Source: a virus
Virus record (IMG/VR): IMGVR_UViG_3300031673_012906
Location: 1-53,541 of that record
Length of the DNA: 53,541 nt
Strand: one strand, 5' to 3'
Within the stretch, counting starts at the first letter, position 1. Every line of letters starts with the position of its first letter. Positions 25,113-50,578 of this stretch are shown here, in pieces. The position numbers were made by a program, and so were the translations under genes. The notes under the pieces are model-generated. The model made no database searches, was not told where the DNA came from, and saw only the letters and a program-made list of their open reading frames with translations.

Positions 25113-27374
25113 TTATCCCATGTTCTCTATAATACGTTGTAAACGTTTATCAAGCTTCACATTTGCATAGGTATTATTCGTGGGTCTGCAATCACGGTGC
25201 ATCACAAGTTTTACCCTATCTGTTTTCCCATCCAGATAGCTGAGTATCTTCCCAACGTTTTCCTTATCCTTAACATTTTCAGCAAGCCAAAAATATCTTT
25301 CTTTCTTACCATCACGATCATTTGAAAACGATGGAACCTTTTCAGCATCGGTTTTAATAGCGTCCCATTTATCCCGGTGTATCTTTTCGGTTATATCGAT
25401 TAATTGTTTTGCGGTGTCCTTAAATTCTTCTGGGAGATTTAATAAGACATCATCCATGTTGAGAATGGTTAAAGTTTCCAAATCAATGGCTCTCCAGAAA
25501 TGTAAAGGTGTGACAGAGCTTAGAATTCTGTGTACCTTACAATATTCTTCGCCTTTTAACTTACACTTATAACCGTTGTCAAAGGTGATGACATATCCTT
25601 CTTCGTTAACGGTTAATTTTTCTTTGGCTGTGAATAAATCTTCAAAATTTTCAAAGTCAAATGATTTAGCAATATCACAACATAAATCATCGGCAGCTTT
25701 CCACGTTTCCCACGGATCTAATTCTCTTCCGGTTGCTGTTTCGATTATAGCTAAAAGGGTTAAAGATTCTTTTTTTCCATAATCTACAACAATCCTGTTT
25801 TCAGGATAAATTATTTCAAATAGATATGTATACTCAGGATTCATTTGATATTGCCGGATATGGCTTTGCAAAAATTTTGTTGCCCAGATAGCTTGTTCGG
25901 ATTCAAATGAACCACGAGTATTTACCCGCCATTCACTGTTATATTTGTAACAAATGCCAAGGCTATTATGAACAAGTATTCCACCAGCAAAAAAATTATG
26001 CGTTTCAGTTTCAAGATCATAACCACATTTACTATTTTTTAAAGCACTATCTTTAGAAATATCATTAGCGATTTTTAAAATTTTTTCCTTTCTTAATTTT
26101 AATACCGAATTAAAAGTTTCTTTTAAAAGAATAGATGGTTTACCCGTTCTATATTTTTCGGGTAATTTATATTGCATACATACGGGAAAATATTTATATA
26201 TAGATTTCCATAAGTTAGTTATTACCTCACCATTATCATAATTAATTCTAATATTCCATCCTTTTGCGTTATACATTGTTAAATTAATATTTTTAAATAT
26301 TTCTCTTATCTTATTTGCTATATTTTCACAGGATTTTTTTGATAAATAATTCATTGATAATGTTAATCTATCATTTTGCTTATCATGGTGAGATAATGAG
26401 CCATTATCCATATACATAAAAGCAAATGATATTTCATTAAACCAATCCAAATTATCAGGTAAATCTTTTTTTCCATTTGGATACCATTGTTTTTTCAAAT
26501 CTCCAAATTCATATGTATTTATTGAAGTATATGGTATCATATTAGTTCCAAACCCCGAAATTCTTTCATATTTTGTGTTAATACATAAATCACCCAAAAC
26601 ATGTTTTTTTAATTCAACATATTCTTTATGTTTTTTCTTATGAAATCCCTGTAATACTGCTCTTTTTTTATTTTGTGAAAAAGATATGCTACTATCAGCT
26701 AATAAAGAACCAAGTAAAATAGATTTTTGTTTGTCTGACATAAAGATTTCTTTACAATATATTTCGTCATTTGTTTTTAATTTATTTAAAGGAACATAAC
26801 CATTATTTGTATAAAATTTATGATTTGCTGTTATTCTTATTTTATTAGTTCCATGTGAACCCCCACCCGATCTATTACTCCAGTTATATGTTGTGGTTAC
26901 AATTTTCCAGTTATCTTTTTTACCATTTTTAAAAAAATTTAATATTTTAACGGGTTTTATTTCGTTGGTTTCGTGTTCATATCCCATAACGTGGGTTAAA
27001 TTTTTATTTTTAACAATGTTACCAATTCTTTCAAATTCACCATTTGGTAACATTATGGGCGTATTAAAATGTAAACACCCATCCATCTTTTCCAACACCT
27101 TAAATTTTCCTTCAAGGTTGGGCTGAAATTCTTTTGGTAGCTTTTCACCTGCTTCGCCATGAAGCTCTTCATAGTTGAAGAATTTTTTAAAACTTCTTGC
27201 TATTAATTTTCCAGTATTTTTTTCAAATACAATACCACGAGCATTTAATGAAATCTCATCCCAATCAAAATCATTTTGGATTTTTTGGCTATAATTAAAT
27301 AAAATTAAACCGTCTTTTTCTTGAGAATTAAGCCCTTCACGCTTCAAAAAATCTTCTAGTTTTAAATTTTGCAT
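25113..27374 (-). CDS. RNA ligase (T4 Rnl1-like) split by an intein
   Basis: 753 residues, of which 100-470 are an intein, leaving 382 residues, close to T4 Rnl1 length. The nucleotidyl-transfer motif I is K-M-D-G-S-L with Lys96; the intein sits between Gly99 and the Ser. Other ligase motifs include L-F-E-I-I-Y-P-E-N-R-I-V (about 518-529) and E-G-Y-V-I-T-F (about 592-598). It seals 5'-phosphate/3'-hydroxyl RNA ends, as T4 Rnl1 does for cleaved tRNA. Until splicing, motif I is broken and the enzyme should be inactive. Confidence 0.9.
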   Translation of the reverse strand: MQNLKLEDFLKREGLNSQEKDGLILFNYSQKIQNDFDWDEISLNARGIVFEKNTGKLIARSFKKFFNYEELHGEAGEKLPKEFQPNLEGKFKVLEKMDGCLHFNTPIMLPNGEFERIGNIVKNKNLTHVMGYEHETNEIKPVKILNFFKNGKKDNWKIVTTTYNWSNRSGGGSHGTNKIRITANHKFYTNNGYVPLNKLKTNDEIYCKEIFMSDKQKSILLGSLLADSSISFSQNKKRAVLQGFHKKKHKEYVELKKHVLGDLCINTKYERISGFGTNMIPYTSINTYEFGDLKKQWYPNGKKDLPDNLDWFNEISFAFMYMDNGSLSHHDKQNDRLTLSMNYLSKKSCENIANKIREIFKNINLTMYNAKGWNIRINYDNGEVITNLWKSIYKYFPVCMQYKLPEKYRTGKPSILLKETFNSVLKLRKEKILKIANDISKDSALKNSKCGYDLETETHNFFAGGILVHNSLGICYKYNSEWRVNTRGSFESEQAIWATKFLQSHIRQYQMNPEYTYLFEIIYPENRIVVDYGKKESLTLLAIIETATGRELDPWETWKAADDLCCDIAKSFDFENFEDLFTAKEKLTVNEEGYVITFDNGYKCKLKGEEYCKVHRILSSVTPLHFWRAIDLETLTILNMDDVLLNLPEEFKDTAKQLIDITEKIHRDKWDAIKTDAEKVPSFSNDRDGKKERYFWLAENVKDKENVGKILSYLDGKTDRVKLVMHRDCRPTNNTYANVKLDKRLQRIIENMG
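25965..27077 (-). mobile_element. Intein with LAGLIDADG endonuclease in RNA ligase motif I
   Basis: 371 residues. It begins Cys (C-L-H-F-N-T-P-I-M), has a block B T-A-N-H, endonuclease helices I-L-L-G-S-L-L-A-D-S and F-A-F-M-Y-M-D-N-G, and the classical end T-H-N-F-F-A-G-G-I-L-V-H-N before Ser+1. All splicing residues are present, including the penultimate His. The insertion site is inside the adenylation motif, between G and S of KxDGS. Confidence 0.93.
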
Positions 27375-29883: not shown

Positions 29884-30600
29884 TTAAAATTTATCTCTAA
29901 CGCCTTTGAATTTTAATAATGTTGGGGGTCTGCCTTTAACTATTTCAGACTTTTGTTTCGTTTCTTCTATTATATACATGGTATTAAATTTTCGTCTGAA
30001 ATTTGGGCTGATAAGTTCCTTTCCAAGAACCGCTTCACATACTTCCTGAAGCTCTGTCCATGTAAACGTTTTTCCTACTAATTCAAAGGCTATTGGTTTA
30101 TTCATAATATCTTCTTTTAACTTTTTTATTAAATCTTTTACAATGATATTATGATCAAACCCCATTTTTTTGGGAACTTTTCGGATGTTATACCATTTTG
30201 TTTCTAGTATATCATCTTTGCCTTTGATTTCCTGCTCCAATATTTTATTGGAAGTAAGTGTATAAAAGGCTGTTGTTATGGTTACATTTCTAGGGTCTCT
30301 TTTAGGATTGCTGTATGTCCCCAATTGACGTATAGACATGCCTTTTACATTGGTTTCTTCTTCCAATTCCCTGTTAGCAGCTTGTTCAAGTGATTCCTTC
30401 CCGATGGTACAATAACCACCCGGAAGAACCCAATAATATTGATATGGGGGGTCTGCCCTTTTACCTAAAAGAATTTTTAATGTGCCATCAATAATAGTAC
30501 ATATGCCTATATCAACGGTATTATTTGCACAAGGGTATTTGCCTTTATCATAATTAGTACCCTTTTTATTTAGGTGTTTACCTTCTGCTGATTTTTTCAT
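29884..30600 (-). CDS. NrtR-like Nudix and winged-helix protein
   Basis: 238 residues. An N-terminal Nudix domain has G-G-Y-C-T-I-G-K-E-S-L (about 61-71) and R-E-L-E-E-E-T (about 77-83), with one extra residue in the G-x5-E spacing. The C-terminal 85 residues (F-E-L-V-G-K-T-F-T-W-T-E-L-Q-E) match the winged helix of NrtR regulators, which bind ADP-ribose and repress NAD genes. Next to nadE, the classic NrtR neighbour. It could be a regulator, an ADP-ribose pyrophosphatase or both. It is the last gene of the NAD operon. Confidence 0.82.
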   Translation of the reverse strand: MKKSAEGKHLNKKGTNYDKGKYPCANNTVDIGICTIIDGTLKILLGKRADPPYQYYWVLPGGYCTIGKESLEQAANRELEEETNVKGMSIRQLGTYSNPKRDPRNVTITTAFYTLTSNKILEQEIKGKDDILETKWYNIRKVPKKMGFDHNIIVKDLIKKLKEDIMNKPIAFELVGKTFTWTELQEVCEAVLGKELISPNFRRKFNTMYIIEETKQKSEIVKGRPPTLLKFKGVRDKF

Positions 30601-30602
30601 CG

Positions 30603-31451
30603 TTATGCTGCCTTCAACAACTCTTCCCTTGGAATATTATAAGGATTATTCCTTTTGAATTCTGTTGCTTTAAAACGTAAAATTATGGGATGTTTTTCTA
30701 CGGATGTGTCACCGTTACGATATCTGGTAAGTATTTCATCAGCTTCGGCGTATGTGGCCACACCAAGCTGATCTAAGTCGCTATTGCTGATTCCTAACCC
30801 ATCGGTGGGGTTAGCCAAAATACACTGGTACAGGGCATCCTTGGCTTCTGGAGATATGCCCTCATAATTGTTTTCGCAGATATATTTAGCAAGTCCATAA
30901 ACCTCAGTTTTCCACAGGTTCTGAATCATCCCATAGTCACCGACATCACCATGCAGCGTCCAAAAACCAGCCAATAATTCGGTAAAATTATCTGTGGAAA
31001 GAACCATTCCATCGTAATGTCTGGCAATATCATAGAGATACATCATTCTTATTCTGGCCTTGATGTTCCCTTTTCGTATTTTAATTTGGTTTTCATAATT
31101 TTCAGTTAACCCACCATCTCTATAGGAAATTTCATCTTCCATTATGTATGGGTAAAATTTTTGATACATCTCTGTTAAATCTTTTTCCTCAAAATCGGTG
31201 CAAAAGAAATAACCTATTCTTTCGGCTCTTATACGTTCATCATCTTTATTTGTTTCAATGGGAATGCTTCTCCCTATCAAACGAGTATTAATAGATGGTA
31301 TGTCGCAAACTGGTTTTGCGAGAACTGTGCATAATGCACTATCAATACCACCGGATTCACCAATAACCAATGCTTTAATTTTATCATTGATAATCTTTGT
31401 ACGTAAATTCTCGTGTATATTACTGATTACCCTGCTATAATCCGTTATCAT
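30603..31451 (-). CDS. nadE: NAD+ synthetase
   Basis: 282 residues from the ATG at 31451, chosen because GGGAGG lies just before it; an upstream in-frame ATG at 31484 contains that Shine-Dalgarno. The PP-loop G-E-S-G-G-I-D-S (31-38) and S-T-D-N-F-T-E (about 153-159) are intact. The family converts NaAD to NAD+ with ATP and ammonia. No glutaminase domain. Two bases separate it from the NrtR-like gene. The PncA and PncB genes of this window supply the upstream steps. Confidence 0.93.
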   Translation of the reverse strand: MITDYSRVISNIHENLRTKIINDKIKALVIGESGGIDSALCTVLAKPVCDIPSINTRLIGRSIPIETNKDDERIRAERIGYFFCTDFEEKDLTEMYQKFYPYIMEDEISYRDGGLTENYENQIKIRKGNIKARIRMMYLYDIARHYDGMVLSTDNFTELLAGFWTLHGDVGDYGMIQNLWKTEVYGLAKYICENNYEGISPEAKDALYQCILANPTDGLGISNSDLDQLGVATYAEADEILTRYRNGDTSVEKHPIILRFKATEFKRNNPYNIPREELLKAA

Positions 31452-31452
31452 A

Positions 31453-31932
31453 TTATTTCCTCCCAAAAATATAAAAGTTATCAACTATCAGATGTGACAT
31501 GTAACCCAGAAAACTTGCAATGTAATATGCTAAGAAATATTTTTCATAACCGAAGTGAATAAATATAAAATAAGCTGGTATTGGTGCTAGTCCTCCAACC
31601 CAAATATTATGAGTGAAGCCCCGGTGTTTAAACAATTGCGGTAACATCGCTAAAAATGATAACGAACAACCTAACTTATAATACCCCAGATAATAAAATC
31701 CAACTAATGTTAACATAACTAGAAGGTAGACAATTTTTGAACTCACAGATTTTATGTCAATATCTGGTAACAATGCAAATATAAAAGCAGCGGGAGCAGA
31801 AAATAGTATGATCTTTATTATTGATTCGGTATCAAGGGTTCCCACCGTTTCTTTATATATGTATAGATTGAGTGCTGTTGCAGCACACGCAACAACCAAC
31901 CCTGCATTTCTATGTGTTTTAAACCCACTCAT
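31453..31932 (-). CDS. YdjM-like membrane metal-dependent hydrolase
   Basis: 159 residues, four to five membrane helices. L-P-D-I-D (about 55-59), H-R-G-F-T-H-N (about 103-109) and S-H-L-I-V-D (about 146-151) are the metal-binding motifs of the YdjM/LexA-regulated hydrolase family. The substrate of this family is unknown, so its place in an NAD/ADP-ribose operon is informative. One base before the nadE start. Confidence 0.8.
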   Translation of the reverse strand: MSGFKTHRNAGLVVACAATALNLYIYKETVGTLDTESIIKIILFSAPAAFIFALLPDIDIKSVSSKIVYLLVMLTLVGFYYLGYYKLGCSLSFLAMLPQLFKHRGFTHNIWVGGLAPIPAYFIFIHFGYEKYFLAYYIASFLGYMSHLIVDNFYIFGRK

Positions 31933-32144
31933 TTTATCATTAACTCGACTATTTTTTCTTTGAGTTTTTTACCTTCTTCTATTGAATCAAATGTTAATGT
32001 ATACTTATCATTAATAAGCAATTTAAATCCCTTTCCAAATGTGGGACTTGTAAAAATTTTTCCAACATGAACTATGTTGGCTATTTTAATCACCCCATCA
32101 GGATATGTTATTATTTTGTCATCAACTATGGCTACGTTGCTCAT
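31929..32144 (-). CDS. Small beta-rich protein of unknown function
   Basis: 71 residues, predicted beta-strands followed by a C-terminal helix (E-E-G-K-K-L-K-E-K-I-V-E-L), as in small PH-like or YcxB-like domains. Four-base overlaps at both ends, embedded in the NAD operon. Confidence 0.65.
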   Translation of the reverse strand: MSNVAIVDDKIITYPDGVIKIANIVHVGKIFTSPTFGKGFKLLINDKYTLTFDSIEEGKKLKEKIVELMIK

Positions 32145-32647
32145 TTTGTAAAATCCTTTTTTGTTAACAGTTGTTGATATTCTAAAAATTTTCTGAGATC
32201 AGTTAAATTTTCTCCAAGCCAATTGGTGCCTCTCCATGTGCTTCTATCTTGAGCTTTGGGATTGTCTGCACCCAAACCAATGCCCCATATACGGTCACGG
32301 GGGCTGGCTTCAACTAATGTAGTTCCTGTGGTTTGTAATAAACCCTTTTTCTCATTCTCGTTTTGGGTAAACTTCGCATAACTACCAATGAACACAATTT
32401 TTTTGGCATGCGCATTCCAGATTTTTTCATTAAAACCCTGTACATCCCGACCAGCAGCTTTTTGATCTCTGGGTTCTTTAAGTCCCATGATTTTCACCAA
32501 TGCTTTTTTATCATTAAACAATCGTGCTTTAGAAGCCATCATGTATTGTTCAGCACAATTGTAAACAGTTCTGTCAATTGTAAATTGACAAGGATGCCAC
32601 TGACTGAAAATCCCATGCCAAAAAAATGTAAATTTTTCCTGTTCCAT
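32141..32647 (-). CDS. NADAR (YbiA-like, DUF1768) ADP-ribose-related protein
   Basis: 168 residues from the ATG at 32647, preceded by AAAGGAG. Family features: F-F-W-H-G (about 7-11), N-C-A-E-Q-Y-M-M-A-S-K-A (about 29-40), P-R-D-Q-K-A-A-G-R (about 58-66), E-A-S-P-R-D-R-I-W-G-I-G-L (about 115-127) and W-L-G-E-N-L (about 150-155). NADAR proteins act on ADP-ribosyl or related N-glycosidic substrates; some reverse guanine ADP-ribosylation by DarT. That makes it a candidate counter-defence enzyme. Confidence 0.9.
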   Translation of the reverse strand: MEQEKFTFFWHGIFSQWHPCQFTIDRTVYNCAEQYMMASKARLFNDKKALVKIMGLKEPRDQKAAGRDVQGFNEKIWNAHAKKIVFIGSYAKFTQNENEKKGLLQTTGTTLVEASPRDRIWGIGLGADNPKAQDRSTWRGTNWLGENLTDLRKFLEYQQLLTKKDFTK

Positions 32648-32657
32648 TATTTCTCCT

Positions 32658-32879
32658 TTAGGCTTCTGGTAATTCGGATGCTTCAATTGAAATTCTTTCG
32701 ATACGATGGTAGGGGATAAATTCCATCACACCATTTTTGTTGGTACGATATACACCGTCTTTACTCAAAATTTTCACCTTATCCTTCAAATCGTTTAAAG
32801 GATTAGTATCTCCTATGGTTATCGTTTCATCAACTGAAGAACCACCAATTAAATGAACTGTTACTTTTTTATCTGCCAT
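32658..32879 (-). CDS. Small protein of unknown function
   Basis: 73 residues, beta-rich, with a G-G-S-S segment (12-15). It lies between ARH and NADAR genes with gaps of about 10 bases, so it is co-transcribed. No recognised family; it may be a partner of either neighbour. Confidence 0.6.
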   Translation of the reverse strand: MADKKVTVHLIGGSSVDETITIGDTNPLNDLKDKVKILSKDGVYRTNKNGVMEFIPYHRIERISIEASELPEA

Positions 32880-32890
32880 GTTAAAATTCC

Positions 32891-33769
32891 TTATGTTGTA
32901 ATTTTGGTTAAAAGCTCTTTGATTTCTTCCGCTGATTTTAATTTATCAACCCATCGTTTTGGTATTGCTTCATAGCCATAATAAGCACCCAACAAGGCAC
33001 CAGTTACGGCACCACCCGTGTCTGCATCATCGCCCCTGTTAATGATGGAAAGAACACCCGTTTCAAAATCAGGACAGTTGTGTAACGCCCATAAAGCTGC
33101 GCCTAAACTATGTATGCACCATCCAGAATTAGGCAATTTATCCCACTTCAGAGTTCGGCATGTTTCTAAATAATCTCTTGCAATTTTAAATTGGTCGATA
33201 TCTTTCCCAACCTTGGGATCTTTAAAAAAATCTAGTACAGAAAATTGTTTCATATTATATCCGGCTAGAACCCAATATAAAAGGCTAACAAAACATACAT
33301 CGGTTTCAACACATATTGGATGACCATGGGTTAATTTAGATTGGCTTCTAATTTCTTTAGGGTTTATATCATCTAAAAGTGCTAAAGGCGCACAACGCAT
33401 TATGGAACCGTTCCCCTGAGAAGCCGTATGTGTCATACCACATTCTTCTAACATTTCACCCTTTTCAATATTGGCTATTCCCATGCGAGTTGTGTTTCCA
33501 ATATCAGGTGGGTTTGTATGTTTCCATTTTACGAGATTTTGTGCAATATCGTGCAACTCAAATTTTTTATTTTTAGCAATGCTCCTAAGTAGGCATAACA
33601 TTAAATCTGTATCATCACTTCCCACACCAGCGGGGAATCCAAACGCACCACCCCCAACAATTTCATCATACCAACCATCTTCGGTTCTGGCTTTTGTAAA
33701 TTCCAATGGGATACCAAGGCAATCACCTACATGCAGCCCAATTAACATTCCTAATTTTTTATCATCCAT
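32891..33769 (-). CDS. ADP-ribosylglycohydrolase (DraG/ARH family)
   Basis: 292 residues from the ATG at 33769 with AGGAGAGG just upstream. G-S-D-D-T-D-L (about 49-55) and R-G-D-D-A-D-T-G-G (about 246-254) form the two-magnesium site; G-N-G-S-I-M-R (about 116-122) is also typical. It removes ADP-ribose from proteins, nucleic acids or small molecules. With the NADAR protein it gives two different ADP-ribose-removing activities in one operon. Confidence 0.92.
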   Translation of the reverse strand: MDDKKLGMLIGLHVGDCLGIPLEFTKARTEDGWYDEIVGGGAFGFPAGVGSDDTDLMLCLLRSIAKNKKFELHDIAQNLVKWKHTNPPDIGNTTRMGIANIEKGEMLEECGMTHTASQGNGSIMRCAPLALLDDINPKEIRSQSKLTHGHPICVETDVCFVSLLYWVLAGYNMKQFSVLDFFKDPKVGKDIDQFKIARDYLETCRTLKWDKLPNSGWCIHSLGAALWALHNCPDFETGVLSIINRGDDADTGGAVTGALLGAYYGYEAIPKRWVDKLKSAEEIKELLTKITT

Positions 33770-33917
33770 TATTCCTCTCCTGTGCCTTTCTTCTTTTCTC
33801 TTCATACCTATCAAGGGCAGATAGAAGAATGTGCTCCGCTAACGAGGGAGCTTGTTTAAACTGTTCTTTCTGTTTAAACTGTTCTTTCTCGTGATTAGTG
33901 TCTTTTTTGACTTCCAT
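33762..33917 (-). CDS. 51-residue Lys/Glu/Gln-rich microprotein
   Basis: ATG at 33917, stop overlapping the ARH start by 8 bases. The protein holds two tandem K-E-Q-F-K-Q units from an 18-base DNA repeat, then a helical tail. Function unknown. Confidence 0.55.
   Translation of the reverse strand: MEVKKDTNHEKEQFKQKEQFKQAPSLAEHILLSALDRYEEKRRKAQERNNG
33853..33888. repeat. Perfect tandem 18-bp repeat
   Basis: TGTTTAAACTGTTCTTTC occurs twice in a row inside the 51-residue gene. In-frame, so it duplicates six residues. Confidence 0.9.
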
Positions 33918-33926
33918 TTTTTCCTT

Positions 33927-34097
33927 TTATTTACAACTACTACAATTATACCTTCCACAGAATGGGCATCCTTCTTCATAAAAACCGTCTTTATTCTTTT
34001 CATTAACAGGTATTTTTGTTCCTTTATGAACTAGAGTTGGTTCAGTTCCCATGTGACCGCCAATCCATTCTGTTTTGTTGTCCCTATCATCTTTCAT
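33927..34097 (-). CDS. 56-residue Cys-motif microprotein
   Basis: ATG at 34097 overlapping the kinase-gene stop (ATGA). The C-terminus has C-P-F-C and C-S-S-C pairs (about 44-56), a zinc knuckle. Possibly a partner of the kinase-like protein, by position only. Confidence 0.6.
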   Translation of the reverse strand: MKDDRDNKTEWIGGHMGTEPTLVHKGTKIPVNEKNKDGFYEEGCPFCGRYNCSSCK

Positions 34098-35806
34098 TTT
34101 GATTTCACGCTTTGAAGTTGATTATCATTAACAAATAAAATTCTATCTACACCGTCATATAAATGCATATCCAATTCAACGGGGGAATCTTTTACTTCTT
34201 GAAATCCGTTAGCATTGATGTTATAAAATAGTTCCAGTGTATTTTCTTCTTTGACTGTAACAGCCATACCTTTTTGATTTACCATAAAATTAACGGTTTG
34301 GTAATTAATATCTTGATCGCCCCGTAGTTCGTATGTTGTAAATTCTTTTCTGAAGTAAAAAACGAAACGGTCAAATTTACTATCCTTTTCACCTATGACG
34401 ATGCAGAATCTTCCGATTCGTTTAGCATCTATAATTCGATAACCATCCAATTCAGGAATGTTAACATTAGAACACATTTTGTGTTCGTAAGGTATCGAAA
34501 ACATTGCTTTACCAAAACAATCTTGAATAATTAAACCTGTAAACATCTGAAATGGCCCGACAATGTTACCAACCGCCCTTGGTAGGTGGATAACTCTACC
34601 CATTTTATCGAAGGTATTTTCAACAATTTCATTTTGATAAATGGTATATATAGAACCATTACATTCCATAATATCACTATCGGTTTTTGTTCTGCTTATT
34701 TCCTTTCGTTGTAAATCAAAGAATCCAACGTTTTCACCCGTTTTAACTGCGATAATTGGTTCGCCACCCAACACATTTGCTAACCGAATGTTTTTTGGTT
34801 TTTGGGTAAATGTGAATATTTCTGTATCCCTTTGATAGATGGCCTTAGTGGTAATTACATAACGCTTCTGATTGAAATTATATACATCAATTATAGCATC
34901 ATCATACTTGTAAACAACATCAACAATAAGCCCACCGCTACTGATAACAGCAACAGGTTTGGCACCAACAAATAAACCGGAACCATCTGCAAAAGGTGGT
35001 ACGCTGCGTTCGTTCTTTATAAAAATTAATTTATACCAATCCAGATGTTTGGGTGGGATATATACTTCAAAATCTCTAAGTGATTTTACCAACTTAACAT
35101 CTTTATCAAACACCGAAATACTTTTTTCCATCCGGCCTTCCAAATCATCATTTTCGAAATCTGGATGGTTCCCATTAAAAGGATGTAAACCTGTGTATAG
35201 CCTGAAAGTAACCACTGCCCATGAGAACCAATCACTTAGTTCATTGAATTGACCGAAGGGAAGTAACCTGTCTCTAACACTTGGAGAAATGGCATCACAG
35301 TTAAAATTTTTTGTTTTATATGAATCGACATCAATGTTATATGTTATTTGATATTTTTTATCCGTTAGAAAATTCATTTCATTATAATCACCAACAAGGG
35401 AACCATTTACGCTATGTACGTAGATAAGGGTTTCCTGCATGTGCTTTACAAGATTAGCAGCCATTTCCGGTGTGATACCATTTTCTTTTTTAAATTTTCT
35501 TGAGCATATCCTAATTAAAAATTCGGTGTCGCTTATATAAGGCATTGTGAAACCGATGGGTTTTTTCTTTTTAGGATCGTATATCACATCTTTTGGCCCA
35601 AGGATATTTGGTCTGTCTAACGCTCTTAGTTCCAAAATTTTTTGTTCGGGTATCATGTCTTTTGGATCATGATATATCTTACATGCCATGTTTTTATATT
35701 TGAAAACCTTTGCTTGACCACCCATAGCAATATAATCATCCAACGTAACTACTGGCTGCTTACCCGCAATTAATGCTTTTACTTTTTTACCCGGATTAAC
35801 TGGCAT
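34094..35806 (-). CDS. Serine/threonine kinase-like protein with C-terminal propeller-like region (TerY-P type)
   Basis: 570 residues. The N-terminal kinase lobe has G-G-Q-A-K-V-F (29-35) and Lys43 (A-C-K-I-Y). The catalytic loop is G-D-Y-N-E-M-N-F (139-146, Asp140 and Asn145) and the metal Asp159 lies in I-D-V-D-S. This loop and I-D-x-D-S are typical of the kinases that accompany TerY-like vWA and PP2C proteins. Residues about 275-565 are repeated beta-strands, likely a propeller. The 11-base overlap with the PP2C gene supports a functional triad. Confidence 0.82.
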   Translation of the reverse strand: MPVNPGKKVKALIAGKQPVVTLDDYIAMGGQAKVFKYKNMACKIYHDPKDMIPEQKILELRALDRPNILGPKDVIYDPKKKKPIGFTMPYISDTEFLIRICSRKFKKENGITPEMAANLVKHMQETLIYVHSVNGSLVGDYNEMNFLTDKKYQITYNIDVDSYKTKNFNCDAISPSVRDRLLPFGQFNELSDWFSWAVVTFRLYTGLHPFNGNHPDFENDDLEGRMEKSISVFDKDVKLVKSLRDFEVYIPPKHLDWYKLIFIKNERSVPPFADGSGLFVGAKPVAVISSGGLIVDVVYKYDDAIIDVYNFNQKRYVITTKAIYQRDTEIFTFTQKPKNIRLANVLGGEPIIAVKTGENVGFFDLQRKEISRTKTDSDIMECNGSIYTIYQNEIVENTFDKMGRVIHLPRAVGNIVGPFQMFTGLIIQDCFGKAMFSIPYEHKMCSNVNIPELDGYRIIDAKRIGRFCIVIGEKDSKFDRFVFYFRKEFTTYELRGDQDINYQTVNFMVNQKGMAVTVKEENTLELFYNINANGFQEVKDSPVELDMHLYDGVDRILFVNDNQLQSVKSK

Positions 35807-36680
35807 GGTTTACCTTTAAGGTAGCTGAAGAAATATCATCAAAGTGTTGAGCTTGGATTTTTTCCATTTCTAATTTTAGTCTATCCATTCTTCTTCTCAC
35901 AAACTTACCGTGGGTTTTTTTATACGCAACTGTGTTGAATGCTACTTCAGGCGTGGTAATAAAATTCTTTTCTTCGGGTGTGGGTTCTTCAAGTTTTTTA
36001 GGATTAAATTCATATGTTTCAATACCATCGCTGGATAAAGAAATGAAATCAATTTTTTTAATATCACCTGTGTGTATTAAGGGGGCAGTAGATTCGGTGG
36101 TAATAATGTTTGATAAATATCCCGTGTCTTTGTATGTTCGGAGGTTAACTGTTCGTTCTGCACCACCAAATTTTTCGTCATCCATGTAACTATGTTTCCG
36201 TAATACATCCATTTCGTAGGATAAATAATATGGAGCATTACTGGCGTAGTTGATATTAAACCACGCACTAGTACCATTGGTACGTTTGATAATTATATTA
36301 CCATCACCATATCCGATGATAAAATATTTGCCCTTAGTCGCAATTGCCATTAATAAGGTGGCATCGCAAATTTGATAGGAAAGCCCAAATTGAGCAACGG
36401 TATTTTTTGAGTAGAATATGATATCCATTTTTATACATGCTACCAATTGTTCCAACGATAAATTTTCTATTAAACTGCCATGATATGCATTCTTAATTGC
36501 TTTCTCTGCACTAAAGGATATAATTCTGGAACCAAGATCAGTCTTAGGCGAGGATGTACATCCATCAGATATAATTACATACGCAAGTTCCCCATCTCCG
36601 AATTTACCTTCTAGGGCGTAATCTTCACATATGTTATGACCATTTCCTAATTCAATATAGGAATCAACATTAAAATTCAT
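35796..36680 (-). CDS. PP2C-family protein phosphatase
   Basis: 294 residues from the ATG at 36680, with AAAGGAACG upstream. Metal-binding and core motifs: N-I-C-E-D-Y (about 16-21), I-S-D-G-C-T-S-S-P-K-T-D-L-G (about 37-50), G-Y-G-D-G (about 122-126), S-S-D-G-I-E (about 216-221) and D-D-I-S-S-A-T-L (about 281-288). It should reverse phosphorylation by the neighbouring kinase. The vWA gene precedes it with a hairpin in the 44-base gap. Confidence 0.87.
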   Translation of the reverse strand: MNFNVDSYIELGNGHNICEDYALEGKFGDGELAYVIISDGCTSSPKTDLGSRIISFSAEKAIKNAYHGSLIENLSLEQLVACIKMDIIFYSKNTVAQFGLSYQICDATLLMAIATKGKYFIIGYGDGNIIIKRTNGTSAWFNINYASNAPYYLSYEMDVLRKHSYMDDEKFGGAERTVNLRTYKDTGYLSNIITTESTAPLIHTGDIKKIDFISLSSDGIETYEFNPKKLEEPTPEEKNFITTPEVAFNTVAYKKTHGKFVRRRMDRLKLEMEKIQAQHFDDISSATLKVNHAS

Positions 36681-36695
36681 ATGACGTTCCTTTTG

Positions 36696-36721
36696 AAATG
36701 GGGGAGTAAACCCCCCCATTT
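36696..36721 (-). promoter_or_regulatory. Intercistronic hairpin between vWA and PP2C genes
   Basis: AAATGGGGG and CCCCCATTT form a 9-bp stem with an 8-base loop. No T-run follows on the minus strand, so it is more likely an mRNA processing or stability element than a terminator. Confidence 0.6.
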
Positions 36722-36724
36722 ACA

Positions 36725-37465
36725 TTAAAGGCTGAAGCTTGGGTTTGCTACTGGTTTCGATGGCATACCTGTCTGAATATTTTGTGATGTGCTGGAAACA
36801 CTCTGGCTTATCCATCCAACAACTTTGGCCAGATTTTTTCCGGTAAAATTGGCACAATCAAGAAATTTACTGAACATTCCATCTTTTCTGAATTGCTCAA
36901 GTTCATCTTTATATTCGGCTGCATTTACACCAATCAAAAAAGGTTCAACTATTCCCATCTGTTCATTTCTTTTAATTCTTGTGTAAGCATCTTTAATCTT
37001 AGATGCGGGGTGCTTGGAATCGTTTTCCCATCCATCAGTAACAACGAAGAACACTGCGTTGACTTTGTATTCATCATCGATCAGTTTTTGGGCATATGTT
37101 TCGATTGCTTCAATAGAATTTAAAGTAGCATCAATGAGCGGGGTCATTCCATCGGGTTCAACGCACCCATCATATATAGATGGATCAATAGTACTCAACA
37201 GTTTGAAACCATGTACTTCCTTGATGTTATTGGGAATATAGGAATTGAAAGTAATCACACGAAGCATTACCATTTCAGGACATGGTATATCATCTACACA
37301 TGCCTTGTGTATTTCTTTCATTGCTTTTTCAATAAGCCCTTTGAAATCATCAACGGAAGTTGTTGCGTCCAATGCAACTTGAACCAATGTATATCTGTCA
37401 TCTAACAGATCTTCAATTTCTTCCGTGCTGAACTCAAAGCCAGATGTTGTGCTTAGACTATCCAT
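36725..37465 (-). CDS. TerY-like von Willebrand factor A protein
   Basis: 246 residues. MIDAS-like residues: D-A-T-T-S (33-37, in place of D-x-S-x-S), Thr108 (D-G-M-T-P) and Asp144 (V-T-D-G). The fold pattern is of the TerY/vWA class found with PP2C and kinase in the TerY-P triad. C-terminal Ser/Gln-rich tail. Binds metal or a partner and may act as adaptor for phospho-signalling. Confidence 0.82.
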   Translation of the reverse strand: MDSLSTTSGFEFSTEEIEDLLDDRYTLVQVALDATTSVDDFKGLIEKAMKEIHKACVDDIPCPEMVMLRVITFNSYIPNNIKEVHGFKLLSTIDPSIYDGCVEPDGMTPLIDATLNSIEAIETYAQKLIDDEYKVNAVFFVVTDGWENDSKHPASKIKDAYTRIKRNEQMGIVEPFLIGVNAAEYKDELEQFRKDGMFSKFLDCANFTGKNLAKVVGWISQSVSSTSQNIQTGMPSKPVANPSFSL

Positions 37466-37495
37466 TTTTTAGCTCCTTCTTAGGTTAATTAAATT

Positions 37496-38335
37496 TTAAT
37501 ATCCAAAATAGTTTTCTGTGGTCGCCAGTTTGAGTCCTTTGTCTTTCATTTCACTTACGAATTCTTCACCCTGTGGTGTAAAGTCCACAATACCGGGGAT
37601 AATTACAGGGCTGGAAGCGTCTGTCAAAAGTGTGAACTTCTTTAATTGATCTACATCAAATTGTTCAACTACATCACGCATGGTAGCTGCAACGCAGTGA
37701 GATAAAGCCTGTCCTGCAAATACTATTTCACAGTCATCTTCTTTTAGGATGTTGATCAATGCTTCGTTGAGCATGGTGTTTCTCTCACCGGGGCGAATAA
37801 CTTCCGCTTTAACAGCACTGTAGTGTTCAACAAATGGGTTGGAACCTTTTGTTATCATATTTGCTTTATGATATTTTCTTTCCCACTCATTGATGGCTTT
37901 TACAACGGGTTCCACCATACACCATCCCCAAGTACCAATGATACAGTGTTCGGGCCAAATCTGAACGTTGTATTTTTTACGTGGGTCATCTACCGTCTGG
38001 GTTTCCAGCTTTTCAGTATATTCCAATGCCCAAGATTGATATTTGGGATTGGCAGATCTAAACGCACCATCTAAAACAGATTGGTGGGATATTTGAGTTC
38101 CGGGGTCGGGGTGATTATTGTTTTCATCCAACCACCAAACACCGTGTCCAACGTGGATGACGCTGTGAGAATCCAAGGTACAGGTGATTTTTTTGAATTC
38201 CCCGTTATATTTTTCAATGAACTTTGCTGTGCGCTCACAGTCTTTTTCAGCATTTGCAACATAAAGTGCTGCCTTATTTGGTATGCAAAAATCATTCTGC
38301 ACATCAATCAAAAACAAGTGAATATTCTTATCCAT
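37496..38335 (-). CDS. pncA: Nicotinamidase (isochorismatase superfamily)
   Basis: 279 residues, longer than most PncA. Catalytic triad Asp11 (L-I-D-V-Q-N-D-F), Lys163 (T-K-G-S-N-P-F) and Cys214 (S-H-C-V-A-A-T), with zinc ligands Asp55, His57 and His64 (D-S-H-S-V-I-H-V-G-H). It hydrolyses nicotinamide to nicotinate. First gene of the operon reading left; AAGGAGTT precedes the ATG. A pair of TTATCA-type inverted repeats lies upstream. Confidence 0.92.
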   Translation of the reverse strand: MDKNIHLFLIDVQNDFCIPNKAALYVANAEKDCERTAKFIEKYNGEFKKITCTLDSHSVIHVGHGVWWLDENNNHPDPGTQISHQSVLDGAFRSANPKYQSWALEYTEKLETQTVDDPRKKYNVQIWPEHCIIGTWGWCMVEPVVKAINEWERKYHKANMITKGSNPFVEHYSAVKAEVIRPGERNTMLNEALINILKEDDCEIVFAGQALSHCVAATMRDVVEQFDVDQLKKFTLLTDASSPVIIPGIVDFTPQGEEFVSEMKDKGLKLATTENYFGY

Positions 38336-38369
38336 TTTTTAACTCCTTTTTATTGTTGTTGTACTTTTT

Positions 38370-38452
38370 ATCATTTTGATAATAAACCTATACAATTAAA
38401 TATAAACCTTTTTTTTCAAAAATGCAAACATTTTTTATCAAAATAATAAAAA
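38370..38452. promoter_or_regulatory. Two TTATCAAAAT-type inverted repeats upstream of pncA
   Basis: TTATCAAAATGATAA (minus strand, near 38371-38385) and TTATCAAAATAATAA (plus strand, near 38436-38450) lie in the 180-base gap before pncA. They may be operator sites, for instance for the NrtR-like protein. AT-rich background lowers confidence. Confidence 0.3.
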
Positions 38453-38515
38453 ATACTTGACTTAAGAGATAAATGGTGTTTTTGGATAAATTTCTAAGGG
38501 TATTTTATAATATTT

Positions 38516-40624
38516 TTATATTCTTAATTCTTTTGTTTTTAATAAGGAAGATCTTGAAATTACATTTTCCTGTTCTTGTTTAAAGAGATTCCGTTTGTAT
38601 CGTTCTATCAGCGGGTGATCATGTAATTGAGATTGACCGCTGAAATATTTTTTAAATATCTGTTCCGCTTCCTCATATGATTTAACTTTGAGTTGGGTAA
38701 AATCATTTATAGAAATTCCCATGCGGGGCATTGCTTTGATACAATTAGTGAATGCTTTTCTTTCTTTTATATTTTGGATGCGCTTCTTTAACAAATATTT
38801 TGCTAAATCATAAATTTCAGTTTTCCAAAGCGATTGGATTAAATGAAAATCTCCAACGTCTCCATGAAGCGTCCACAAACCAGTTAAAAAGTCAGTTTGA
38901 TTGACAGTTGAAATTACTTTACCTTTCTTTGTCTGTGCTAAATCGTATAGATATATCATCCTTATTCTGGCTTTAATATTAGCTGCCCGAATTTTAACTT
39001 CTAACGTGTTGTTTTTAATATTAAGATTATTTTCGTTTTTTAATCCTCTACAAAAAACTTTATAGTCAGTGGTTAAATCAACCTTTTGAAATCTTGTACA
39101 TAATAAACTTCCTATCATCTTGGCTAAAATTATATCTTTTTTATTATCATCTTCAATTACAAAACTTCTTCCCATTAAAGGAATCTTCATTTCACGGCAA
39201 ACTTTTCTACATAAAAAAGCAGTGACAGCACTATCAACATCGCCAGAAATTCCCAACACCAAAGATTTAAGTTTATTTGTGGTTATAAAATTTTTCAATT
39301 CAATTGTCATTGATTTTATTAGAAAATCAAAATTATTAAGATTTTTTGAAATAGTTATTTGTCGTTTCTTTCGTAAAAATGTTTCAACTTTTGGTGTTTC
39401 CGGTTCACTAACTTTTAAAATATCAAATATCAAATTCTTATCAAAAATTACTTTGTTATCAGTTAATGGTATAAGTTTTTGAAATTTTTTCCGTATGAAT
39501 TGTTTTAACTCTGTAGGAAATCTAAGTAACGGTTTTATGGTTTTATTTTCGTATAAAAAACCATTACTCGCCCTAATGAGAATATCATTGTTTCCGTGTA
39601 AATTAATCTCTTGGGGAGAAAAGTTGCTATTTCCGAAAATGAAAAATTCAGTAGATTTTTTAAACAATGTCATATCAAAAGCATCAAAAACATTGATGTT
39701 ATTTTTAAATAAATCTAAAAATTTAAATTCACATTTTGTGTTAGGTTGCCATATTAAAAATAATTCACGCTTTCCTTCTTCTGCTATTGATTTTGCTATG
39801 AGATAATCTCTTACTCTTTCACGTAATGTACCTTTAACATCGACATATAATTTGGCCCTTCTTCTGATACAGCTATAATAATTTGGTTTCATTTCTCTTA
39901 TTGAAAAATTCGCCAATTCATGGTCATCTTTTATTCCCCAAGGAACTCTTCTTAAAGATAGGTCTCTATTTTTTATCGTTAGTTCTAATAAATTATCTTT
40001 ATATTCTTCGCTGATGGTTTGATGTTTAACTCTTACAGTATCATCATGTGGTATATGGTTTAATGAATCAGGATATATATTTTTGCGTATTAATCCATTA
40101 TTTTCCAATCGTTCATATAAATCAGAATCATCCCATCCATAACACGTTAATCTTTCATCGTACCCCTGTACTTTAGTTAAATGTTCTCTAAACGCATAAA
40201 TAGCACCGTTCAAATGAATTTCATTTGTATCTCTTGCTAATTCCCATCTTCCTGTAAAAAAAGAATCCTTTTTTAATATAAATTTTTGAAAAAAGTTTTC
40301 GGTAAGTTTAATATCAGCGTCCAATTTTAAAATTTTATTTTTACTGGCAGCTTGTATTGCTAAATTATATGCATAAGAAAGAATCCAATCATCTTCCCCT
40401 TCCACCCTAAGTATGATAATCTGTTTCTTAGCTTTAAATTTATTTACTATTAGTTCTACGGGGCTATCTGAACTCCAATCAACAATAATTATTTCATCGA
40501 TGTTTGGATTATCTACCCATGTCTGTAATGATATTTCTAAATGGTCATTTCTATTTTTTATAGCATTTATAACGGAAACACCATTTTCAATTGGTTTTCC
40601 CAAAATATTACGTGTGTTATTCAT
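38516..40624 (-). CDS. Fusion: GT2 glycosyltransferase, degenerate fucosyltransferase-like segment, NadE-like domain
   Basis: 702 residues. Residues about 15-240 are a GT2 glycosyltransferase with I-I-V-D-W-S-S and the metal site L-D-A-D (about 98-101). Residues about 265-390 resemble the N-terminal half of the fucosyltransferase-like product of 40626. Residues about 445-690 are closely related to the NadE at 30603, including I-K-A-R-I-R-M and T-L-H-G-D-V-G-D. The PP-loop is S-G-D-V-D-S instead of S-G-G-x-D-S, and S-T-V-N-Q-T-D replaces S-T-D-N-F-T-E. The NadE-like part is therefore probably altered in activity, perhaps a regulatory or nucleotide-binding domain. Confidence 0.85.
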   Translation of the reverse strand: MNNTRNILGKPIENGVSVINAIKNRNDHLEISLQTWVDNPNIDEIIIVDWSSDSPVELIVNKFKAKKQIIILRVEGEDDWILSYAYNLAIQAASKNKILKLDADIKLTENFFQKFILKKDSFFTGRWELARDTNEIHLNGAIYAFREHLTKVQGYDERLTCYGWDDSDLYERLENNGLIRKNIYPDSLNHIPHDDTVRVKHQTISEEYKDNLLELTIKNRDLSLRRVPWGIKDDHELANFSIREMKPNYYSCIRRRAKLYVDVKGTLRERVRDYLIAKSIAEEGKRELFLIWQPNTKCEFKFLDLFKNNINVFDAFDMTLFKKSTEFFIFGNSNFSPQEINLHGNNDILIRASNGFLYENKTIKPLLRFPTELKQFIRKKFQKLIPLTDNKVIFDKNLIFDILKVSEPETPKVETFLRKKRQITISKNLNNFDFLIKSMTIELKNFITTNKLKSLVLGISGDVDSAVTAFLCRKVCREMKIPLMGRSFVIEDDNKKDIILAKMIGSLLCTRFQKVDLTTDYKVFCRGLKNENNLNIKNNTLEVKIRAANIKARIRMIYLYDLAQTKKGKVISTVNQTDFLTGLWTLHGDVGDFHLIQSLWKTEIYDLAKYLLKKRIQNIKERKAFTNCIKAMPRMGISINDFTQLKVKSYEEAEQIFKKYFSGQSQLHDHPLIERYKRNLFKQEQENVISRSSLLKTKELRI

Positions 40625-41632: not shown

Positions 41633-42838
41633 TTAATGATTAATCTGAAAAACTTTTTTAACGTGAGTTTCATGTTCTGCGTCTTCACACATACCTTTAC
41701 CCTTGGAATCAGATATTTTAGCTACGGGGTTACCGTTGACTTCAACCAGTTTCATAACCATCTGTAGGGCGACATATAACGGCCCTAAATCGAAGCCTAA
41801 ATGAGTTCCTATGCCAAAGCTTAATTTGATTTGATTTCTGAATCTCTCGATCAATTTAAACATTAATTCAAATGTTACACTGTCACTGAATACAGCAGTT
41901 TTTGATGTTGGTGAAAGACCAAGTTGCTCATAATGATTTATCAATTTTTCGCACCACCAAAAAGGATCACCTGAATCATGCCGACAGCCATCAAATAACT
42001 TGGCAAAATACAAATCAAAATCTCTGAGAAAAGCATCGAAACCCACAACATCACTTAATGCAATTCCCAAACGACCACGATATACTTCTGACCATACCTG
42101 AAGCATATATTTAACACTGTCCTTGAGGTTAACGCCTTGCAAGCCCTGACCAAGCATCTCATATTCATGTGCCATCGTGCCAATATCAAGTAAATCGTGC
42201 TTCATTGAAAAATGTAAATTACTGGTTCCCACGAAACAATTTGAAGGAAAGCCAGCTTTTAATGCTAGTAGCATTTCTTCGTGCCAATCAAAACTTGGCC
42301 TTCTGCGAGTTACAAAATCAGCAAACGTAAACGTTGAAACATTTCTGAAAAAAGCATTCCCTTTTTTTATTTTATCATCCAACCGTCTACGACCTTCGGA
42401 ATAATCCATATTGGGATATTCATTGCGGGTATATACTTCTTGAGCAATACCCAGAACAAATGTTTCAAATGGGCTTGTGTATATAAGTGGGGAATCTGGC
42501 TGCGTACCGATATGTAAACGCCCTTCTTTTTCACGAATATCTATATAATCATAGTTTAATTTGAAATGTCGTAAAAATTCGATGAACGCCACGCTAAAAT
42601 AGGGGTTTCTTTCTTTAAGAAACCCAAGTTCTTTTGATTCCAACGAAAGTGAGCATAAATGTTTTACATGGTCTTTAATTTCATCCATGTATGGCAGTAA
42701 ATTATAAGAACTTCTGTTTTTAAATGAATACCTTGAAAGAACATTACTGAACCGGGAGAAAAACACATACAGCATGGTGTATTTATATTTATCTGTGTCT
42801 AAAAGACTATTGATGATGGGTTTATCAATTTTAGCCAT
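41633..42838 (-). CDS. pncB: Nicotinate phosphoribosyltransferase
   Basis: 401 residues, the length of E. coli PncB. Motifs: L-L-D-T-D-K-Y-K (12-19), F-A-D-F-V-T-R-R-R (about 171-179), G-T-S-N-L-H (about 204-209), G-T-M-A-H-E (about 220-225), R-H-D-S-G-D-P (about 284-290) and F-G-I-G-T-H-L (about 344-350). It makes NaMN from nicotinate, PRPP and ATP. NAMPT-like use of nicotinamide is possible but less likely because a nicotinamidase is encoded nearby. AAGGAGCGG precedes the ATG. Confidence 0.92.
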   Translation of the reverse strand: MAKIDKPIINSLLDTDKYKYTMLYVFFSRFSNVLSRYSFKNRSSYNLLPYMDEIKDHVKHLCSLSLESKELGFLKERNPYFSVAFIEFLRHFKLNYDYIDIREKEGRLHIGTQPDSPLIYTSPFETFVLGIAQEVYTRNEYPNMDYSEGRRRLDDKIKKGNAFFRNVSTFTFADFVTRRRPSFDWHEEMLLALKAGFPSNCFVGTSNLHFSMKHDLLDIGTMAHEYEMLGQGLQGVNLKDSVKYMLQVWSEVYRGRLGIALSDVVGFDAFLRDFDLYFAKLFDGCRHDSGDPFWWCEKLINHYEQLGLSPTSKTAVFSDSVTFELMFKLIERFRNQIKLSFGIGTHLGFDLGPLYVALQMVMKLVEVNGNPVAKISDSKGKGMCEDAEHETHVKKVFQINH

Positions 42839-47766: not shown

Positions 47767-47836
47767 GCTGGTGAGAGGAATCGAACCCCCGTAGCCTGAT
47801 TACGAAACAGGAACACTACCACTGTGCTACACCAGC
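47766..47836 (-). tRNA. tRNA-Thr(CGT)
   Basis: Acceptor GCTGGTG/CACCAGC, anticodon loop TTCGTAA, T-arm GTTCGATTC. CCA is not encoded. One mismatch in the anticodon stem. Confidence 0.88.
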
Positions 47837-47837
47837 A

Positions 47838-48551: not shown

Positions 48552-48552
48552 A

Positions 48553-48822
48553 TTATTTATCCTTTTTTTTACCTTTTAGTTTAGGTTTAAGCTTGGGCAA
48601 ACTATCACCAGTACTCTTTCTATGCCCCCTAATTGCTTTTCTATAATCCGGTGGATCAGCGGTTTTACCAGAAGCAACCAATATAACAGTCCACGGTTCC
48701 GTCCATTCTTCGCCTTTTTTAATTGATACACGGTGGCCAATTTTACAATGTTTCTCAGGAAGCCATGCCACATAAGTAGTATTACCTTGTTGTAATTTAC
48801 ACTGTCTATAAAACGTTTTCAT
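48553..48822 (-). CDS. Small basic protein of unknown function
   Basis: 89 residues from the ATG at 48822; an upstream ATG at 48861 is less likely. Beta-rich core (T-Y-V-A-W-L-P, R-V-S-I-K-K) and a long Lys-rich tail (K-P-K-L-K-G-K-K-K-D-K). Another overlapping frame was rejected on composition. Possibly nucleic-acid binding. Confidence 0.55.
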   Translation of the reverse strand: MKTFYRQCKLQQGNTTYVAWLPEKHCKIGHRVSIKKGEEWTEPWTVILVASGKTADPPDYRKAIRGHRKSTGDSLPKLKPKLKGKKKDK

Positions 48823-48861
48823 ATCAATAAAAATATATTTTGCCCGAATATAAACGTACAA

Positions 48862-49767: not shown

Positions 49768-49789
49768 ATCAAACCTTTTATACTTTTCA

Positions 49790-50573: not shown

Positions 50574-50578
50574 AAATT

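What the first reader, a model, noticed from the sequence alone, without database searches (positions are those of the whole stretch)
29884..38335. A 13-gene phage operon joining NAD+ salvage, ADP-ribose removal and TerY-P phospho-signalling
Thirteen minus-strand genes are packed with overlaps or gaps of at most 44 bases: PncA, vWA, PP2C, kinase, two microproteins, ADP-ribosylglycohydrolase, a small protein, NADAR, another small protein, a YdjM-like hydrolase, NadE and an NrtR-like Nudix/winged-helix protein. NADAR and DraG/ARH proteins are known ADP-ribose-removing families and NrtR is a known ADP-ribose-responsive NAD regulator. TerY-P triads are known as bacterial stress modules. I do not know of a description of all these in one phage operon. 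Inference: a system that restores NAD+ and erases ADP-ribose marks made by host defences (NAD-depleting effectors, DarT-like toxins), with reversible phosphorylation controlling it.
Basis: partly seen in the sequence, partly recalled or inferred. Interest (0 to 1): 0.93.

Follow-up and report, generated by a model that had tools for sequence, protein, structure and literature searches.

The report
Phage NAD+ salvage operon with phospho-switch
A large uncultured phage carries a gene block that recycles nicotinamide into NAD+ next to a dedicated kinase/phosphatase/vWA switch; about 90 other phage sequence groups and scattered bacteria keep the same nicotinamidase-plus-switch core, which I did not find described and which suggests that NAD+ recycling is controlled by protein phosphorylation.

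Summary
The 13 minus-strand genes are real (at most 30 bp between neighbours once starts are corrected) and the family calls hold.

The core is PncA-vWA-PP2C-kinase. All four occur in 91 of 105 viral sequence groups; kinase-anchored loci have PncA within 10 kb in 66 of 69 groups, always on the same strand. PncB, NadE, NadD, NrtR or NAD+-dependent ligase often sit alongside; one phage has PncB-PncA-vWA-PP2C-kinase-NadE-NadD as one run. The same block occurs sporadically in bacteria (Parcubacteria, Rhodoferax, Bradyrhizobium, Acidobacteria), where an NrtR-like operator precedes PncA, PncB and NadE far more often than control genes (odds ratio 12).

So this is a phage copy of a prokaryotic, probably phospho-regulated, deamidating NAD+-salvage locus. 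NADAR and ARH are accessory: NADAR is moderately enriched near the module, ARH is not. The switch resembles TerY-P/YegI-PphC-YegL, but its kinase ends in a beta-propeller and it misses PADLOC's TerY-P models. Counter-defence is plausible, not shown. Observation confirmed; interpretation partly supported; novelty moderate to high.

The parts
41633..42838 (-).
   Evidence: NCBIfam TIGR01514 358 bits vs cut-off 269.6; PDB best hit nicotinate PRTase 1yir E 2.5e-89
38516..40624 (-). Glycosyltransferase family 2 - NadE fusion; PP-loop SGDVDS instead of SGGxDS
   Evidence: Pfam NAD_synthase 2.1e-27 at residues 437-612 and Glycos_transf_2; NadE domain 40% identical to the operon NadE
38336..38515 (-). 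180-bp AT-rich intergenic, likely promoter region of the operon (TTTGCA-18-TATATT at 38428-38399 is only a consensus match)
   Evidence: number of promoter-like matches in the region not above shuffles
37496..38335 (-). PncA, nicotinamidase with a long stretch between metal ligands H57 and H130; triad D11/K163/C214 and metal ligands D55/H57/H130 invariant
   Evidence: AF2 pLDDT 91.7, best PDB folds all nicotinamidases
36725..37465 (-). vWA (TerY/YegL-like), intact MIDAS (D33, S37, T108, D144); tail with invariant serines 220/222/224/227/236
   Evidence: hhalign to YegL 75%, E 2.4e-5
35796..36719 (-). PP2C-type Ser/Thr phosphatase, metal-ligand aspartates conserved
   Evidence: Pfam PP2C_2 8.8e-13; alignment A7
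34094..35806 (-). Ser/Thr kinase (K43, D140, N145, D159) with C-terminal beta-propeller (about 287-570)
   Evidence: Alignments A5/A9; AF2 pLDDT 91.5 and Foldseek; hhalign to YegI 98%, E 3e-14
33927..34097 (-). 56-aa ORF with CPFC..CSSC (zinc-ribbon-like); overlaps the kinase stop by 4 bp
   Evidence: not conserved
33762..33917 (-). 51-aa ORF, coding status uncertain
   Evidence: not conserved
32891..33769 (-). ADP-ribosylglycohydrolase (DraG/Tri1 type), SDDT and GDDADT motifs present
   Evidence: Pfam 2.5e-63; PDB 6dre 9e-33
32658..32879 (-). 73-aa protein, no homologue found
32141..32647 (-). NADAR domain protein; aspartate (LTDLR) where YbiA-type NADARs have glutamate
   Evidence: TIGR02464 151 bits vs 73.7; alignment to 8bau; residue rule from PMC11125620
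31929..32144 (-). 71-aa protein, no homologue found
31453..31932 (-). YdjM-like membrane protein
   Evidence: Pfam YdjM 2.1e-13
30603..31451 (-). NadE, ammonia-dependent NAD+ synthetase (no glutaminase domain)
   Evidence: TIGR00552 115 bits vs 63.7; PDB NadE hits; 49-53% identical to NadE of other phages
29884..30600 (-). NrtR-like Nudix + winged-helix regulator
   Evidence: Pfam NrtR_WHD 61 bits vs 27; PDB 5bs6 and 3gz5, E about 1e-23

Best explanation
The operon is a phage-carried version of a prokaryotic NAD+-salvage locus. PncA deamidates nicotinamide (released when NAD+ is consumed) to nicotinate, PncB makes nicotinate mononucleotide, a NadD (from the host, or on an unsequenced part of this phage) adenylylates it, and the ammonia-dependent NadE completes NAD+; PncA releases ammonia and NadE uses ammonia. 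The kinase-propeller, PP2C and vWA form a dedicated phospho-switch for this salvage, probably setting the activity or assembly of PncA or of its vWA partner. NrtR adds ADP-ribose-responsive transcriptional control. NADAR and the DraG/Tri1-type hydrolase are accessory genes in this phage that strip ADP-ribose from nucleic acid and protein. Shown here by sequence: gene families, catalytic residues, conserved co-localisation, full pathway in relatives, bacterial counterparts with shared operators. Inferred: co-transcription, direction and target of phosphorylation, a rise in NAD+, and the benefit (phage replication, including NAD+-dependent ligase in relatives, and/or resistance to NAD+-depleting defences).
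For: Core PncA+vWA+PP2C+kinase in 91 of 105 viral groups, 84 of 90 in the same order. Kinase-anchored: PncA within 10 kb in 66/69 groups, 75/75 occurrences on the same strand. 53 of 91 core groups carry at least one further NAD gene within the fetched flank; 14 carry PncB+NadE+NadD. L005 (170-kb phage contig): PncB-PncA-vWA-PP2C-kinase-NadE-NadD, then one gene, then LigA. Catalytic residues conserved. PncA model matches nicotinamidases. PncB and NadE pass curated models. Prokaryote loci: PncA in 53/57 with enough upstream sequence, often with NrtR, PncB and NadE and in one case NadA; TTAGT-N11-ACTAA upstream of PncA 13/62, PncB 6/24, NadE 3/17 versus 16/721 controls, odds ratio 12, p = 7e-12.
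Against: No biochemical data. No NadD in the 53.5-kb record. The operator is not found in the phages, so NrtR control there is unproven. PncB/NadE are within reach in only about 40% of groups, so PncA plus the triad may do something narrower than full NAD+ synthesis. Adjacency does not show that PncA is a phosphorylation target. Distribution in bacteria is sporadic (4/192, 3/99), more like a mobile or conflict gene set than a housekeeping one.
Confidence: 0.66

Rival explanations
1. Counter-defence: the operon restores NAD+ drained by host NADases (Thoeris, DSR, TIR/SIR2 effectors) and erases ADP-ribose marks (DarT-like toxins), functionally parallel to NARP1/NARP2.
For: Phage NAD+ reconstitution as counter-defence is established in the literature (Osterman 2024 as cited in PMC13232231 and PMC13292451). 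NADAR in the same unit, with the aspartate of DarT1-linked NADARs; NADAR near the module in 15 groups vs 4 expected, p = 2e-5. Nicotinamide is the by-product of NADases and is what PncA uses.
Against: Same core in bacterial chromosomes beside NAD biosynthesis genes. LigA beside the module in 11 core groups suggests a plain metabolic need. ARH not enriched. No defence-specific gene is consistently linked.
Confidence: 0.35
2. The PncA-triad is a conflict or signalling device in its own right: PncA removes nicotinamide (an inhibitor of sirtuins and ADP-ribosyltransferases) or makes a nicotinate signal, and the triad acts like TerY-P defence in bacteria and as superinfection exclusion in phages; the other NAD genes are passengers.
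For: Triad architecture resembles TerY-P, a reported anti-phage system (PMC7699616, PMC11090510); sporadic distribution in bacteria; PncA is more tightly linked to the triad than PncB/NadE.
Against: PADLOC TerY/PP2C models give no hit for the window triad and only E = 0.02 for a relative's PP2C. Recurrent PncB/NadE/NadD/NrtR neighbours and shared NrtR-like operators.
Confidence: 0.17
3. No single system: a metabolic gene neighbourhood in which unrelated small operons happen to abut in this phage.
For: Most of the window is minus-strand and gene-dense; four small ORFs and YdjM are not conserved beside the core; NADAR/ARH sit elsewhere in most relatives.
Against: The four-gene core and its NAD companions recur in order in about 90 viral groups and in bacteria. 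It can be true only for the part inserted between kinase and NadE.
Confidence: 0.1

Closest known systems
Preiss-Handler (deamidating) NAD+ salvage, PncA-PncB-NadD-NadE
   Same: Three of four enzymes in the window, all four in 14 related viral groups
   Different: Phage-borne and joined to a phospho-signalling triad; no NadD in this record
Phage NAD+ reconstitution NARP1 / NARP2 (Adps-Namat; NadV-NadM/NadR)
   Same: Phage genes that rebuild NAD+ from its breakdown products
   Different: Different chemistry: nicotinamidase and nicotinate PRTase instead of NadV or Adps/Namat. The 2022 survey of viral NAD+ systems names only NadV, NadM and NadR as synthesis enzymes and has no mention of PncA or NadE (PMC9503650)
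TerY-P triad / E. coli YegI-PphC-YegL
   Same: vWA, PP2C and Ser/Thr kinase encoded together; kinase domain homologous to YegI, vWA to YegL
   Different: Kinase ends in a beta-propeller rather than a zinc ribbon or OB fold; PncA is a constant partner; no match to PADLOC TerY-P models
NrtR-controlled NAD operons
   Same: Nudix + winged-helix regulator with NAD genes; TTAGT-N11-ACTAA operators in bacterial relatives have the palindrome layout reported for NrtR (PMC6800001)
   Different: Operator not found in the phages; regulon includes the kinase/phosphatase/vWA genes, not mentioned in the NrtR papers read
ARG-centred host systems with NrtR-like regulator, phosphatase, vWA (PMC9503650 section 3.8)
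   Same: ADP-ribosylglycohydrolase, Nudix-HTH regulator, vWA and NADAR in one neighbourhood
   Different: Those are bacterial, and no nicotinamidase, PncB, NadE or protein kinase is named among their parts

Membership tests
Preiss-Handler NAD+ salvage | Nicotinamidase with D-K-C triad and metal ligands | tested here: met
   Invariant in 38 homologues; fold search
Preiss-Handler NAD+ salvage | Nicotinate (not nicotinamide) phosphoribosyltransferase | tested here: met
   TIGR01514 above cut-off
Preiss-Handler NAD+ salvage | NadD | tested here: not met
   Absent from the 53.5-kb record, which is probably a fragment; present beside the module in relatives
Preiss-Handler NAD+ salvage | NadE | tested here: met
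   TIGR00552 above cut-off, SGGIDS present
NARP1/NARP2 | Adps+Namat, or NadV+NadM/NadR | tested here: not met
   The only NAD-type phosphoribosyltransferase found among the larger ORFs is a nicotinate PRTase; no Adps model was searched
TerY-P triad | vWA with MIDAS, PP2C and Ser/Thr kinase encoded together | tested here: met
TerY-P triad | Kinase with C-terminal zinc ribbon or OB fold | tested here: not met
   Beta-propeller instead
TerY-P triad | Match to PADLOC TerY-P models | tested here: not met
   No hit at E<=1 for the window; relative PP2C E 0.02
TerY-P triad | Anti-phage activity | not testable with these tools
   needs plaque assay
NrtR | NUDIX plus NrtR winged helix | tested here: met
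NrtR | Operator upstream of target genes | tested here: inconclusive
   Found in bacterial relatives, not in window or phages; a diverged motif cannot be excluded
NrtR | ADP-ribose response | not testable with these tools
   needs EMSA
NADAR | NADAR domain and acidic last-strand catalytic residue | tested here: met
   aspartate type
ADP-ribosylglycohydrolase | PF03747 domain with metal-binding motifs | tested here: met
   SDDT and GDDADT read in the sequence

The most novel reading that the evidence does not exclude
A previously undescribed, widespread phospho-signalling system shared by large phages and scattered bacteria, in which a kinase with a beta-propeller sensor, a PP2C and a vWA protein gate nicotinamidase and hence the whole NAD+ recycling flux; phages use it to set the NAD+ budget during infection, including against NAD+-depleting immunity.
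Probability: 0.45. Interest if true: 0.88.

Novelty: new variant of a known kind. Interest (0 to 1): 0.74.

Why it matters
Phage NAD+ reconstitution is a live topic in anti-phage immunity, but the described routes use NadV/NadM/NadR or Adps/Namat. Here is a deamidating route in phages, nearly all uncultured, joined in about 90 viral sequence groups to a kinase/phosphatase/vWA triad of the kind whose cellular role (YegI-PphC-YegL, TerY-P) is poorly known. The constant partner, PncA, gives a concrete candidate process for such a triad and makes it testable with purified proteins. It also shows bacteria and large phages sharing one NAD control locus.

Tried and rejected
Zinc-ribbon microproteins beside the kinase as a split TerY-P ribbon: 10/81 near the kinase vs 53/781 elsewhere, not convincing. 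NrtR operator in the phages: weight-matrix and consensus scans gave chance-level hits. ARH as part of the core: 4 groups vs 3.2 expected. NADAR-anchored search: 0 of 59 loci have PncA or the kinase. Single-sequence ARH scan of viral contigs gave one hit, uninformative. Direct DNA similarity to named phages: none. PADLOC TerY-P assignment: no hits for the window. Promoter scans of this AT-rich region are not above shuffles. Literature searches for nicotinamidase with vWA/PP2C found nothing relevant; the library lacks subscription papers, so absence is not proof.
Full report
Observation. The 13 ORFs are present as described. Using the ATG starts with Shine-Dalgarno sites for ARH, NADAR and NadE, the spacings from PncA to NrtR are 30, 5, -11, -4, 9, -8, 11, 10, -4, -4, 1 and 2 bp. 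Pfam and NCBIfam support the enzyme names. The vWA and kinase are below the Pfam cut-off but carry their metal-binding or catalytic residues, invariant or nearly so in 31 and 60 aligned sequences. The window is a 53,541-bp IMG/VR record; no DNA match to named phages. Two NAD genes upstream were missed: PncB (passes TIGR01514) and a glycosyltransferase-NadE fusion whose PP-loop reads SGDVDS.

Conservation. A PP2C search found two uncultured huge phages (485 and 595 kb) that also hold the kinase, vWA and PncA in the same order. Profile searches of IMG/VR with kinase and PncA alignments returned 80 loci each. Collapsed at 90% identity of PncA or kinase, all loci form 105 groups, of which 91 have all four core proteins; 84 of 90 keep the order PncA-vWA-PP2C-kinase, median span 5.3 kb. 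Anchored on the kinase alone, PP2C is within 10 kb in 69/69 groups, PncA in 66/69, vWA in 65/69, and every one of 75 PncA occurrences is on the kinase strand. Groups are not independent evolutionary events, but kinase identities to the window are mostly 28-42%, so the link is old.

Companions. PncB occurs in 38 groups, NadE or its fusion in 41, NrtR in 39, NadD in 23, NAD+-dependent DNA ligase in 13, NADAR in 15, ARH in 4. Fourteen groups have PncA, PncB, NadD and NadE within the fetched flanks. L005, from a 170-kb contig in the window's own viral clade, reads PncB-PncA-vWA-PP2C-kinase-NadE-NadD-(132 aa)-LigA. In L005, L010 and L072 NadE follows the kinase directly; in the window seven genes, including ARH and NADAR, lie between kinase and NadE. 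I infer that these were inserted. Measured densities in 17 phage contigs that carry the module (5.2 Mb) are one NADAR per 520 kb and one ARH per 650 kb, so 15 NADAR near 105 modules exceeds the expected 4 (p = 2e-5) but 4 ARH does not exceed 3.2. The 59 NADAR-anchored loci show no PncA or kinase.

Bacterial counterparts. A scan of GTDB genomes with the kinase alignment gave 80 loci. Where at least 4.5 kb upstream is available, PncA is present in 53/57, vWA in 53/57 and PP2C in 47/57; median span of the four is 4.3 kb. Hosts include Parcubacteria and other Patescibacteria, Rhodoferax, Bradyrhizobium, Acidobacteria, Myxococcota and Armatimonadetes; several lie on scaffolds of 0.4-1.5 Mb. A Parcubacteria contig of 412 kb has NadA, NrtR, PncA, vWA, PP2C, kinase, PncB and a NadE with a glutaminase-type domain together. 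Some short MAG contigs may be misbinned phage. The kinase is sporadic: 4 of 192 genomes in the Parcubacteria phylum sample and 3 of 99 in the Bradyrhizobium genus sample. In the kinase tree the window falls in an all-viral clade of 20 (support 1.0), while other viral and bacterial clades interleave, implying repeated exchange.

Operator. In bacterial loci a palindrome TTAGT-N11-ACTAA (typically TTAGTGT-N7-ACACTAA) lies upstream of PncA in 13/62, PncB 6/24 and NadE 3/17, versus 1/75 for the kinase and 16/721 for control ORFs (Fisher p = 7e-12). The pattern was noticed in part of these loci first, so the test is not fully independent, but the Patescibacteria sites were not in the starting set. 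Known NrtR sites are palindromes of this size that differ by lineage (PMC6800001; PMC5343134). So in bacteria PncA and the triad appear to share a regulon with PncB and NadE. The phages show no such enrichment.

Proteins. AlphaFold2 gives a kinase domain followed by an all-beta propeller (pLDDT 91.5; domain arrangement uncertain, pTM 0.55); PDB matches are protein kinases, LRRK2, and WD40/BamB propellers. The PncA model's best PDB matches are nicotinamidases. The kinase domain is homologous to E. coli YegI (98%, E 3e-14), the vWA more weakly to YegL (75%), PP2C hardly to PphC (19%). TerY-P kinases are described with a zinc ribbon or OB fold (PMC11090510), and PADLOC's TerY-P models do not recognise the window triad. 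It therefore looks like a TerY-P/Yeg-type triad in architecture but is not filed as TerY-P. The vWA tail has five invariant serines, a candidate phosphosite region (inference).

Interpretation. The best-supported reading is a phage copy of a prokaryotic deamidating NAD+-salvage locus with its own phospho-switch, dressed in this phage with two ADP-ribose hydrolases and an NrtR regulator. What is shown is gene content, catalytic residues, synteny, bacterial counterparts and operators. What is inferred is transcription as a unit, which protein is phosphorylated, and the benefit. Counter-defence is a plausible benefit because phages are known to rebuild NAD+, but supplying phage NAD+-dependent ligase and general metabolism fits equally, and bacteria carry the same set.

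Novelty. The 2022 survey of viral NAD+ systems names NadV, NadM and NadR as phage NAD+ synthesis enzymes and does not contain the terms PncA, nicotinamidase or NadE. The jumbo-phage overview reports Ter genes and NAD salvage as separate systems. Searches of the held library for a nicotinamidase-vWA-PP2C-kinase link found nothing. NadE in phages is annotated in public records, so parts are known; the linked module is what appears new. Subscription literature could not be searched.

Noticed in passing
window 38516-40624: Glycosyltransferase family 2 fused to a second NadE domain whose PP-loop reads SGDVDS; possibly a decayed or repurposed NadE.
   Followed up: partly
window 25113-27374 and 21736-23898: RNA ligase (T4 Rnl1-like) interrupted by an intein with a LAGLIDADG domain, and an RlaP-like nucleotidyltransferase with a LAGLIDADG-like insert; with a calcineurin-like phosphoesterase between them, an apparent RNA-repair block.
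   Followed up: no
window 47766-53483: Twelve tRNA genes among glycosyltransferase, dephospho-CoA kinase and small ORFs.
   Followed up: no
window 6763-8290: Plus-strand pair: hexapeptide acyltransferase-like protein and a beta-keto acid cleavage enzyme (BKACE), unusual in a phage.
   Followed up: no
window 11855-12943: Subtilisin-like protease (Pfam Peptidase_S8).
   Followed up: no
L003 28804-29355: Protein that looks by eye like a macro domain (TARG1/DarG-like) about 6 kb downstream of the kinase in huge phage LR745208; a similar macro-like cluster is near the module in 9 groups, though one member had no Pfam hit.
   Followed up: partly
L136 17062-18960, L005 13577-15496 and others: NAD+-dependent DNA ligase next to the module in 13 viral groups, a direct NAD+ consumer.
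   Followed up: partly
L032 14577-15389 and others: Thg1-like tRNA-His guanylyltransferase in 12 groups within 10 kb of the module.
   Followed up: no
L238 3468-6146: Adenosine deaminase - Nudix fusion between PncB and NrtR in a Rhodoferax locus.
   Followed up: no
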